NCBI RefSeq assembly: GCF_017873605.1
Contig: NZ_JAGGKI010000002.1
Span: 248,001-312,000 of the forward strand
DNA: 64,000 nucleotides
DNA from: Paenibacillus lactis
GTDB lineage: Bacteria > Bacillota > Bacilli > Paenibacillales > Paenibacillaceae
Direction: 5' to 3'
Shown: positions 9,463-47,707 of the stretch, in pieces
Position numbering within the stretch: position 1 is the stretch's first letter
How the letters are laid out: every line of letters begins with the position of its first letter
Position numbers and translations under genes: made by a program
The notes under the pieces: generated by a model
Database searches by the model: none
Told to the model about the DNA's origin: nothing
The model's input: only the letters and a program-made list of their open reading frames with translations

Positions 9463-9653
9463 AACATCACCCCCTAACGTTAAAGTATGGTTCACCCAAA
9501 GCTGCCTTTAATAAATAAAACACCTTGTTCCTACGGTTGGTTTGGAGCTTTGCCAGATTTCCGCGAATCCGGTAAACTGGATAGGCATGTTTTTTAACTC
9601 CGATTGCTGAATCGGACCCCAAATATCGGATGACGAAATGATTGGTGAAGCTT

Positions 9654-12146
9654 ATGACAACCTCAACCGTTAGCATACCTTTTTATAAACGCCCGTTCGG
9701 CACGAACCGCTTGGATGTTCCCTTGGCAAAGCTGGCCACCTTGGAAAACAGCCGGGATCTGGTGGCCCACGATGCGCCGGACGCGGCTTTTTTTCGCGGA
9801 TTGGAATCGCAGGGTCTATTCTTGAACCGCGCCCAGATCCAGGCCGTACGGCATACGCAGGGCCCGCTGCTTACCCTTGCCGGAGCAGGCTCCGGCAAGA
9901 CGTCCGTGCTGGTCAGCCGCACCGGCTACCTGATCGCCTGCCGCAGGGCCGCCCCGGCCTCCATCCTGCTCGTTACGTTCTCATCCAAGGCCGCGGCCGA
10001 GATGAAGGAACGCATCATGGCGCTTCCCGGGCTGAGAGCCGGAGAAGCGGCCAAAGTGACGGCAAGAACATTCCACTCCTTCTTCCTGTATCTGCTCCGC
10101 ACGCGAGGGTATCGCCAGGAAATTCTGGGAAACGCAAGGCATCAGCAATTCATCATCAAGCGCATACTCCGGGAAATGGGACTGCAGGACCGCTATGAGG
10201 CTGAAACGCTGCTCTCGCTATGGTCCGCTTACCGGATGAACATGACCGGGATGAATGAGCTGCCCGGCAGCACGCCGGCGGAAGTGGAGCAGCGCGAAAT
10301 CTTCGCCCGCTACGAGGCGTGGAAGGAAGCGCACGACCAGATGGATTTTGACGATATCCTGGTGCTGTCGCATCGTCTGCTTACAACCGAGCCGGCATTG
10401 CTGGCCTCGCTGCAAAGGCGTTACCGGTATGTCATGGTCGATGAATTTCAAGACACCGGGCTGCTGCCGTATGAGCTTCTGAAGCTAATCGTCGCCCCGC
10501 ACCGCAACCTCATGGTGGTCGGCGATGACGATCAGACGATCTACGGCTTCAATGGCGCCCGAAACGAGTTTATTCTTGAATTCGATCAGACCTACCCCGA
10601 TGCGAAAATCATCACCCTGGATATCAATTACCGCTCCCTCTCCTCGATCGTCGGGCTCGGCAATGAAATCATCCGGGTCAACCAGCGGCGCCGTCCCAAG
10701 CAGCTGCGATCCACCCGCAAGAGCGGCAGCGTGCCGCTGTACTTGCGTCCCGGCGACCCTGACCAAGAAGCCGAGCTGCTGCTGAACCATATTACGGAAG
10801 AGATCCGGGAGCGCGGCAGGTCCTATCGGGATTATGCGATTTTATACCGGACCGCCAGCAATAGCAGAGCCATATTTGAACAGCTGGTGATGCGGGAAAT
10901 TCCGTTCATTCATTATGAAAATGGCGAGCTGTTCTACGAGCAATGGGTCGTCAAGCCGGTGATGGACCATCTGCGCCTGTCGCTGGACCGCCGCAATTTT
11001 AACGCTATGGAGGGAATGCTCCATACCTTGTATGTGAACCGGGACAAAGGCATGGCCTTTATCCGGGAGAAGGATGCGCCCCGTCCCAAGAAGGGACCTC
11101 TTGCCCATCTGCTGAGCTATCCCGGCCTGAAAGACTTTCAGGTCGAGCAAATCCGGGAACGCTCCAAGCTGATTAAAGGGCTGCAGGCCATGGAGCCGGT
11201 ATCGGCCATTCAAGAGATCCGGCGGCGCTTCTATGACAAGTTCCTGGAGGCGGATGAGCGGCAGGAGCTGACGCTGCATAAGGAGCTGATTCAGGAAGGG
11301 CTTGATGAGCTGGAGGCCTCAGCCAAGCGGTTCAAAGAGGTTGCCGAGTTCGTCGGCTTCGTGGACCGTCTCATTGATATCCATCGGGAGATGGCGGCAA
11401 TGAAGCGGGACGAGGAAGCGGATGCGATCCGGCTGATGACGATTCATAAATCGAAGGGGCTGGAATTCCCTTCGGTCTGCCTGATCGGGGCAAGCGAGGG
11501 CATTTTACCCCATTCCTCTTCGCTCCTCGCCGAGCATTTGGACGATCACCATCCGTTGTCGGACAAGGAAGATAAGGCACTGGATGCGCTGGAGGAGGAG
11601 CGCCGGCTGGCTTACGTGGCGATCACCAGAGCCCGGGATGAGCTCATCATAAGCTCACCGGCTTACTATCGCGGGCGTAAAACCGACGTGTCGCGCTTCT
11701 TCCGGGACGTCTTCCTTACGGAAGAGCAGCGCGAACAAGCACGCGGGAACGCTTCGGAAGCGGCCGAAGCCCGGAGAACCCGCGGAAATGGCTTTGAGAC
11801 AGCCCGCAGGCCGGCATCTTCGGGACGGCCCGTGTCAACGCGGACGGCAGGCGGCGGCTCCGACAGAGCATCACGGGAGCATAAGCGGAAGCCGATTCCG
11901 GTAACAGTTCCCGGTACGGTTAACCCGGAGCGACGGGAGCCCCAGCCGCCCGTTGAAATGGAAACCGTCAACGTATGGCTGTGCACGGGAGCGGGCTGCA
12001 AGGGCTGGCAGCGGATCCAGCCTGCCGGGCAAGCTCCTGTCCGCGGCTCCCGGGGTTCTGAGGGCAAGGCATGCCCGCTATGCCAAGCGCCGATGAAGCA
12101 GGGCCGTAAAGAGGTGCCTGTCCCGAAGCGTGTGCGAAGGTCGTAA
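9654..12146 (+). CDS. UvrD/Rep-type DNA helicase with C-terminal YdjO-like zinc ribbon
   Basis: An ATP-dependent superfamily 1 helicase of 830 residues, probably unwinding DNA during repair or replication restart. All motifs are visible: LNRAQIQAV (Q motif), GAGSGKT (77-83), VDEFQD (262-267), GDDDQTIYGFNGA, INYRS, TIHKSKGLEF and AYVAITRARDE. The N-terminus carries about 60 extra residues before the Q motif. A low-complexity linker follows the helicase core, then a zinc ribbon with Cys777, Cys782, Cys807 and Cys810 (VWLCTGAGCKGW and CPLCQAPM). That ribbon closely matches the stand-alone YdjO protein at 47089-47331. The ATG at 9654 is chosen over TTG at 9642 because GGTGA precedes it. Confidence 0.92.
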   Translation: MTTSTVSIPFYKRPFGTNRLDVPLAKLATLENSRDLVAHDAPDAAFFRGLESQGLFLNRAQIQAVRHTQGPLLTLAGAGSGKTSVLVSRTGYLIACRRAAPASILLVTFSSKAAAEMKERIMALPGLRAGEAAKVTARTFHSFFLYLLRTRGYRQEILGNARHQQFIIKRILREMGLQDRYEAETLLSLWSAYRMNMTGMNELPGSTPAEVEQREIFARYEAWKEAHDQMDFDDILVLSHRLLTTEPALLASLQRRYRYVMVDEFQDTGLLPYELLKLIVAPHRNLMVVGDDDQTIYGFNGARNEFILEFDQTYPDAKIITLDINYRSLSSIVGLGNEIIRVNQRRRPKQLRSTRKSGSVPLYLRPGDPDQEAELLLNHITEEIRERGRSYRDYAILYRTASNSRAIFEQLVMREIPFIHYENGELFYEQWVVKPVMDHLRLSLDRRNFNAMEGMLHTLYVNRDKGMAFIREKDAPRPKKGPLAHLLSYPGLKDFQVEQIRERSKLIKGLQAMEPVSAIQEIRRRFYDKFLEADERQELTLHKELIQEGLDELEASAKRFKEVAEFVGFVDRLIDIHREMAAMKRDEEADAIRLMTIHKSKGLEFPSVCLIGASEGILPHSSSLLAEHLDDHHPLSDKEDKALDALEEERRLAYVAITRARDELIISSPAYYRGRKTDVSRFFRDVFLTEEQREQARGNASEAAEARRTRGNGFETARRPASSGRPVSTRTAGGGSDRASREHKRKPIPVTVPGTVNPERREPQPPVEMETVNVWLCTGAGCKGWQRIQPAGQAPVRGSRGSEGKACPLCQAPMKQGRKEVPVPKRVRRS

Positions 12147-47088: not shown

Positions 47089-47331
47089 TTAGCTGCTGCT
47101 TCCGTTAATCTGGATTCCCTTGCTGAGCGATTTCTGCTGTTTGTTCGTATTGATGAGCTGGGGAAGCTTTCTCGTTTCCTTGACCATAGGGGAATGACAC
47201 AAGTGGCACACAGGCTCCGTGTCGAACGCAAAATCGTCCCGCATCCACCCTTTGCAGTCTTCCTTCGTGCATGCCCACACTTCCGTAATTTCCTCAGGAA
47301 TACTCTCCATCGAGTTTTTACGCGAATACAT
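47089..47331 (-). CDS. ydjO: YdjO-family cold-inducible zinc-ribbon protein
   Basis: An 80-residue protein with four ribbon cysteines, Cys21 and Cys26 (VWACTKEDCKGW) and Cys42 and Cys45 (CHLCHSPM), predicted to bind one zinc ion. It matches the YdjO family, reported as cold-inducible in Bacillus. The start at 47331 follows AAGGAGGAG; the longer frame to 47484 runs through the csp terminator. It is next to a cspA-type gene on the same strand, which supports a cold-related role. The same ribbon ends the helicase at 9654-12146. Confidence 0.85.
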   Translation of the reverse strand: MYSRKNSMESIPEEITEVWACTKEDCKGWMRDDFAFDTEPVCHLCHSPMVKETRKLPQLINTNKQQKSLSKGIQINGSSS

Positions 47332-47454
47332 ATAACGCTCCTCCTTGTGCTTGTCGTTAGAAATCGAAAAACATCTCTCCTGCAAACGGGCGCTTGCCTG
47401 CAAGCCAGCCCGCCTCCGCAGGGGCCCCTGAACATCCGGCTTTTGTTGAAAAAC

Positions 47455-47498
47455 GAAAAGAGGACTGCCCTTAATGTGACACATTAAGGGCAGTCCTC
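47455..47498 (-). terminator. Terminator of the csp gene
   Basis: An almost perfect palindrome, GAGGACTGCCCTTAATGTG (47460-47478) with its complement at 47480-47498, is followed by U-rich sequence on the minus strand, nine bases after the csp stop. Confidence 0.88.
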
Positions 47499-47506
47499 GC
47501 TCGTAC

Positions 47507-47707
47507 TTACAGTTTTACAACGTTCTCAGCTTGTGGTCCACGGTTGCCTTCAACGATGTTGAACTCAACGCGTTGGCCTTCGTCCAGCGTCTTGAAGCCA
47601 TCGCCTTGGATCGCGCTGAAGTGAACGAATACATCGTTTCCGCCTTCAACTTCGATGAAACCGAAGCCCTTCTCAGCATTAAACCATTTAACAGTTCCTG
47701 TTTGCAT
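47507..47707 (-). CDS. CspA-family cold shock protein
   Basis: A 66-residue single cold-shock domain that binds single-stranded RNA and DNA and melts RNA structure. RNP1 is KGFGFIEV (residues 14-21) and RNP2 is VFVHFSAI (26-33). Full family length with no cysteine. CAAGGAGGA precedes the ATG. It has its own promoter, a leader of about 130 bases with a terminator-like hairpin, and a strong terminator. Confidence 0.97.

What the first reader, a model, noticed from the sequence alone, without database searches (positions are those of the whole stretch)
11970..12146. DNA helicase fused to a YdjO-type zinc ribbon that also exists as a separate gene in the same window
The last 60 residues of the UvrD/Rep-type helicase (VWLCTGAGCKGW and CPLCQAPM) match the whole core of the YdjO protein at 47089-47331 (VWACTKEDCKGW and CHLCHSPM), with the same Cys-x4-Cys and Cys-x2-Cys spacing. 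YdjO is otherwise known as a small cold-inducible protein of unknown role. A shared ribbon suggests that YdjO binds nucleic acid or the same partner as the helicase, perhaps acting in cold-related DNA or RNA remodelling. The fusion gives a functional hint for YdjO.
Basis: partly seen in the sequence, partly recalled or inferred. Interest (0 to 1): 0.72.

Follow-up and report, generated by a model that had tools for sequence, protein, structure and literature searches.

The report
Helicase carrying a YdjO zinc ribbon
A DNA helicase in this bacterium ends in the same small zinc-ribbon module as YdjO, a cold-induced protein of unknown role; the match is real and old, and it suggests the module is a docking or nucleic-acid-gripping part, which makes the function of YdjO testable.

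Summary
The last ~60 residues of a UvrD/PcrA-like helicase (window 9654-12146, +) pass Pfam's cut-off for YdjO (PF14169); profiles of helicase ribbons and stand-alone YdjOs match (hhalign 98.9%), and 975 cysteine-preserving shuffles score far lower. The ribbon was found in 72 of 81 orthologues read from the order, and in two relatives elsewhere; helicase ribbons form one group. Seven orthologues lack it. It hangs on a disordered linker where PcrA has its RNA-polymerase-binding Tudor domain; the genome also has a true PcrA. The YdjO model's one significant PDB match is an entry titled as an integrative model of YdjO with SigA (9A6I). I favour docking on the transcription machinery (0.4), with nucleic-acid grip a close rival (0.35): helicase ribbons are basic (mean +3.8), csp-linked YdjOs acidic (-2.5), which speaks against one shared partner. 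New context: ydjO lies directly behind a cold-shock gene in 45 of 54 order loci, often after a terminator-like hairpin (31 of 48). Function is inferred, not shown.

The parts
9654..12146 (+). UvrD/PcrA-like SF1A helicase gene with C-terminal YdjO ribbon (830 aa from this ATG; frame open from TTG 9642)
   Evidence: ORF, start region; PF00580 212 bits, PF13361 153 bits, PF14169 36.5 bits
9657..11783 (+). helicase motor core; motifs GAGSGKT, DEFQD, GDDDQTIY, IHKSKGLEF, YVAITRA present
   Evidence: sequence, invariant columns of 49 homologues; fold match to PcrA 1pjr E 1.8e-45
11784..11945 (+). disordered linker (model residues 710-763, pLDDT under 50; residues count from the codon at 9657)
   Evidence: about 8-182 residues in 72 orthologues, measured from the last S-R/Q-F/Y
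11952..12122 (+). YdjO-type zinc ribbon; Cys codons at 11982, 11997, 12072, 12081
   Evidence: PF14169, hhalign 98.9%, predicted strands 768-776/784-786/812-821
47089..47331 (-). stand-alone ydjO (80 aa), Cys 21, 26, 42, 45
   Evidence: PF14169 95.8 bits; model pLDDT 86-93 by ten-residue block over residues 11-60
47460..47498 (-). terminator-like hairpin (18-bp stem, T-rich tail) between csp and ydjO
47507..47707 (-). cold-shock protein gene (CSD, 66 aa) directly upstream of ydjO
   Evidence: PF00313 109 bits

Best explanation
The gene encodes an accessory SF1A helicase (UvrD/Rep/PcrA type, distinct from the genome's PcrA) whose linker-borne C-terminal module is a YdjO-type zinc ribbon instead of PcrA's Tudor domain. 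Shown by computation: the ribbon's homology to YdjO, its wide presence, the separate PcrA, the variable linker. Inferred: one old fusion; the tethered ribbon recruits the motor to its place of work, most likely the transcription machinery (SigA/RNA polymerase), where the motor would clear RNA-DNA hybrids or stalled complexes as PcrA is proposed to do. Stand-alone YdjO would be a small cold-induced factor on the same machinery.
For: Homology: (39 of 39 tails match PF14169). Helicase ribbons form one group, support 99/98. Same layout as PcrA: core, disordered linker, small C-terminal domain; PcrA's Tudor domain on a disordered linker binds RNAP (PMC8318588, passages). The pcrA model's match ends at position 667 of 725 on this protein, while the genome's true PcrA scores 1083 bits and includes its C-terminus. 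The one PDB fold match of YdjO at E under 0.001 is 9A6I, titled 'Integrative model of YDJO-SIGA by crosslinking MS and deep learning' (E 1.3e-5; Z 8.1). The csp-ydjO pairing fits a transcription or RNA role for YdjO.
Against: The 9A6I match is YdjO matching YdjO: the only news is the entry's title, the entry is itself partly predicted, and B. subtilis as its source is my inference. The presumed source paper names neither YdjO nor SigA in its main text, and I saw no crosslinks or scores. Net charge of the ribbon core is opposite: mean +3.8 (39 helicase tails) against -2.5 (48 csp-linked YdjOs). The RDNF-x-F stretch of YdjO is not kept in helicase ribbons. Seven of 81 orthologues read lack the ribbon. 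58 of 149 order genomes have no helicase at the threshold used, though 143 of 149 have a YdjO match, so YdjO does not need the helicase. No helicase neighbour hints at a pathway.
Confidence: 0.4

Rival explanations
1. The ribbon is a nucleic-acid grip: a basic zinc ribbon that holds single-stranded DNA, RNA or a fork near the motor and raises processivity, as the C-terminal domains of topoisomerase I hold ssDNA.
For: Helicase ribbons are basic, mean +3.8. Three genomes gave sub-cut-off PF14169 matches (about 23 bits) in the zinc-rich C-terminus of a protein that I read by eye as a type IA topoisomerase. Non-significant fold rows include MCM proteins. Topoisomerase I C-terminal domains bind ssDNA (PMC4678816, start of abstract in the listing).
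Against: csp-linked YdjO is acidic; no significant fold match to a nucleic-acid-binding ribbon; sub-threshold matches are what C4 ribbons commonly give.
Confidence: 0.35
2. The ribbon is a structural or regulatory cap (zinc-stabilised, redox- or autoinhibition-linked) with no fixed ligand; its sharing with YdjO reflects only a common mobile fold.
For: Absent in seven of 81 orthologues read whose motor is intact; one ribbon (L090) has Ser in place of a Cys; linker length varies widely.
Against: Trp, Pro and Met beyond the zinc ligands are invariant and an Arg nearly so in 39 tails; found in 72 of 81 loci read, across families.
Confidence: 0.2
3. The two ribbons are unrelated C4 ribbons that look alike because of their cysteines.
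For: Both are short four-cysteine ribbons; pairwise identity is only 31%.
Against: Profile match 98.9%, PF14169 over cut-off, cysteine-preserving shuffles far below.
Confidence: 0.02

Closest known systems
PcrA/UvrD helicase (TIGR01073; PcrA with C-terminal Tudor domain)
   Same: Same motor fold (1pjr E 1.8e-45), same layout of core, disordered linker and small C-terminal domain.
   Different: 379.8 bits against an equivalog cut-off of 911.2; C-terminal domain is a YdjO ribbon; the genome has its own PcrA elsewhere.
YdjO, cold-inducible protein (PF14169)
   Same: C-terminal ribbon over the family cut-off; same predicted strand pattern.
   Different: Basic on average instead of acidic, lacks the RDNF-x-F stretch, joined to a helicase; its own group in the tree.
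YdjO-SigA integrative model, PDB 9A6I
   Same: 43% identity to the window's YdjO (60 aligned residues, 68 columns).
   Different: Concerns stand-alone YdjO; says nothing about the helicase.

Membership tests
YdjO domain family PF14169 | Score over Pfam's gathering cut-off (27 bits) | tested here: met
   36.5 bits whole helicase, 40.1 bits tail alone; 39 of 39 tails match at E up to 5, best 1.9e-12
YdjO domain family PF14169 | Four cysteines C-x4-C / C-x2-C with flanking Trp | tested here: met
   one of 39 tails (L090) lacks one Cys
YdjO domain family PF14169 | Same three-dimensional fold | tested here: inconclusive
   Predicted strands have the same lengths (9, 3, 10) and the first two the same spacing; the models were not superposed
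YdjO domain family PF14169 | Zinc bound; induction in the cold | not testable with these tools
   needs protein and transcript data
PcrA (TIGR01073 equivalog) | Score over 911.2 bits | tested here: not met
   379.8 bits
PcrA (TIGR01073 equivalog) | C-terminal domain of PcrA (Tudor) | tested here: not met
   model match ends at 667 of 725; the C-terminus is a YdjO ribbon
SF1A UvrD/Rep-type helicase | UvrD N- and C-terminal domains with intact motifs | tested here: met
   PF00580 and PF13361, invariant motor residues in 49 homologues, fold
SF1A UvrD/Rep-type helicase | ATP-driven 3'-5' unwinding | not testable with these tools
   inferred from family

The most novel reading that the evidence does not exclude
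A lineage of accessory helicases carries, where PcrA has its RNA-polymerase-docking Tudor domain, a YdjO ribbon that docks on SigA/RNA polymerase, so that YdjO is a transcription-machinery-binding module used both as a cold-induced free protein (made behind a cold-shock gene and perhaps switched by Csp antitermination) and as a helicase anchor.
Probability: 0.25. Interest if true: 0.78.

Novelty: new variant of a known kind. Interest (0 to 1): 0.52.

Why it matters
YdjO is still described as a cold-shock-induced, functionally uncharacterised protein (PMC6449464, citing a 2002 study; passage). A helicase that carries the same module, a conserved csp-ydjO pair and a deposited YdjO-SigA model together make a direct test possible: does the module dock on RNA polymerase or on nucleic acid? 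It would also show that related helicases can bear different recruitment modules.

Tried and rejected
Unrelated ribbons: rejected. Special to this genome: rejected. A frameshifted or missed ribbon near the ribbonless or broken orthologues: eight loci scanned in six frames with strict motif patterns, none found. A conserved pathway beside the helicase: in 44 loci, mostly with only 1.5 kb of flank, the larger of the 12 clusters printed are alternative frames of the helicase itself; true flanking families reach 7-8 loci. Relatives with solved structures by sequence: best E 0.33 for YdjO and 0.0057 for tails, the latter only a CPLC knuckle; that search did not list 9A6I, the fold search did. RbpA, a sigma-binding zinc protein, appears among fold rows with E above 1; not used as evidence. 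Topoisomerase-like origin: only sub-cut-off matches. Mycobacterial UvrD2 with a cysteine-rich C-terminus came to mind (recalled); one search listed no paper, ten, none read. YjcD of B. subtilis as a name for the orthologue is recalled; one search listed three papers, none read. Rows dropped before counts: near-identical rows (21 YdjO and 49 helicase rows kept, the window's own counted); L096, whose knuckles lie far apart, from the tail alignment; L063 and L064 as second copies of L119 and L111 from the count of 81; duplicate csp-linked ribbons from the tree (42 of 48 kept).

Full report
OBSERVATION. The frame at 9642-12146 (+; ATG at 9654) encodes a UvrD/PcrA-like helicase (PF00580 212 bits, PF13361 153 bits). 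Its last part matches PF14169 YdjO with 36.5 bits against a cut-off of 27. The gene at 47089-47331 (-) is YdjO with 95.8 bits. The genome, 6.74 Mb in 47 contigs, holds no other PF14169 match at E 0.001 or better. Residue numbers below count from the codon at 9657.

IS IT MORE THAN CHANCE. BLASTP of the two tails gives 31% identity over 64 columns. A profile of 39 helicase ribbons against one of 21 stand-alone YdjOs gives probability 98.9 and E 2.2e-17. All 39 tails, scanned one by one at E up to 5, match PF14169, best E 1.9e-12; 35 other families also match some members, among the 25 families shown at most 14 members and best E 0.00085. A profile of 48 csp-linked YdjOs gives the 39 tails 24.6-44.2 bits; 975 shuffles that keep the cysteines in place reach at most 16.4.

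HOW COMMON. Of 149 genomes drawn from the order, 91 have the helicase at E 1e-120 or better and 143 have some PF14169 match. I read the C-terminus in 81 of the 91: 72 carry the ribbon. The nine others are G128, cut by a contig end with a matching helicase end and ribbon at the start of another contig; G054, a truncated gene; and seven that end without a ribbon: G140, G126, G136, G068, G112, G022, G078. Of the ten not read, eight show a PF14169 match in a frame of 857-862 aa; G082 and G116 were not checked. Outside the order, a survey of 299 genomes of the phylum gave four relatives at E 1e-100, all without ribbon; a class survey of 299 genomes with PF14169 turned up one more helicase with ribbon, G669. 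Of 80 named loci (a capped list) I read 17 tails: Paenibacillus radicis, Paenibacillus arenilitoris and Pullulanibacillus pueri have the ribbon; the other 14, at 31-34% identity, do not, and many end by eye like PcrA.

ORIGIN. In a tree of 87 ribbons the 39 helicase ribbons form one group (99/98), the csp-linked YdjOs another (98/99), and six members of a mostly basic stand-alone subfamily lie between them, on the YdjO side. Only 52 columns were used, 46 of 84 inner branches are open and the bootstrap had not settled. One old fusion passed down with a few losses is the simplest reading; transfer to G669 or Pullulanibacillus is not excluded. 29 of 39 tails score higher with the second subfamily's profile than with that of csp-linked YdjO, but that profile rests on six sequences, and the window's own tail does not (32.9 with the second against 33.6 bits with the csp-linked profile).

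ANATOMY. The AlphaFold model of the helicase (mean pLDDT 85) has a PcrA/UvrD core (best fold match 1pjr, E 1.8e-45), a stretch 710-763 under pLDDT 50, then ribbon strands 768-776, 784-786, 812-821. YdjO alone gives 13-21, 29-31, 48-57: the same lengths and, for the first two, the same spacing. I did not superpose the models or place zinc. The linker is roughly 8-182 residues long in 72 orthologues.

WHAT THE RIBBON MAY DO. Three facts point to docking. First, PcrA has the same layout, and its linker-borne Tudor domain binds RNA polymerase (PMC8318588, abstract and passages read); here the pcrA model's match stops before that end, and a true PcrA with its own C-terminus is encoded elsewhere. 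Second, the one PDB fold match of the YdjO model at E under 0.001 is entry 9A6I, titled as an integrative model of YdjO with SigA from crosslinking mass spectrometry and deep learning (E 1.3e-5; Z 8.1, rmsd 3.9, 60 aligned). This is YdjO matching YdjO, so the news is the title alone. The presumed source study (PMC10090944; abstract, section 11 and passages read) names neither YdjO nor SigA in its main text, so the strength of that link is unknown to me. Third, stand-alone ydjO sits behind a cold-shock gene (below). Against a shared partner: the ribbon core carries +3.8 net charge on average in helicases, -2.5 in csp-linked YdjOs and +2.3 in the second subfamily (n = 39, 48, 6). A basic ribbon could equally grip nucleic acid. 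I put docking at 0.4 and nucleic-acid grip at 0.35; both may be true together. Also, 58 of 149 genomes lack the helicase at my threshold while 143 of 149 have a YdjO match, so YdjO has a role of its own.

CONTEXT OF ydjO. A cold-shock gene lies directly upstream on the same strand in 45 of 54 loci read from the order and 3 of 22 outside it. Of the 54, the first 31 were the window's own and the 30 best-scoring YdjOs, hence biased (31 of 31); in the other 23 it is 14. Six of the nine exceptions in the order belong to the second subfamily. A terminator-like hairpin stands between csp and ydjO in 31 of 48 linked loci, against 17 of 960 single-base shuffles; in the window it is an 18-bp stem at 47498-47460. 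Since some Csp proteins melt terminators (recalled), ydjO could be switched on in the cold by read-through; untested. The Rfam cspA thermoregulator scores 61.1 bits over 47777-47457, under its cut-off of 78.

IN PRINT. Seventeen papers of the library hold 'ydjO', six of them also 'helicase'; by title several concern E. coli, where another gene bears that name (recalled). I read passages in six: PMC6449464, PMC4186907, PMC3498285, PMC7407005, PMC10017872 and PMC3514339; those passages name no helicase fusion. [quoted passage not shown] The other eleven papers were seen in the listing only. Since Pfam's own model detects the fusion, the architecture is implicit in public databases; I did not find its meaning discussed in what I read.

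VERDICT.

Noticed in passing
window 47089-47707 (-); loci L001, L003-L032, L120-L123, L133, L144-L183: Stand-alone ydjO lies directly behind a cold-shock gene in 45 of 54 loci read from the order and 3 of 22 outside.
   Followed up: yes
window 47498-47460 (-): Strong terminator-like hairpin between csp and ydjO; 31 of 48 linked loci have one, many with a similar CTGCyCTTAAC stem by eye. Possible Csp-controlled read-through.
   Followed up: partly
loci L147, L148, L151, L152, L155, L163: A second, mostly basic stand-alone YdjO subfamily without csp upstream, lying between helicase ribbons and csp-linked YdjO in the tree.
   Followed up: partly
G044, G069, G075, G079, G101, G127 and the window (35 kb): Helicase and a stand-alone ydjO lie within about 3-36 kb of each other in these genomes; in others that I compared by eye the distance runs to hundreds of kb (coordinates). 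Probably old gene order; no test made.
   Followed up: no
L090 (G079), helicase ribbon: One helicase ribbon has Ser where the third Cys should be, perhaps a decaying ribbon.
   Followed up: no
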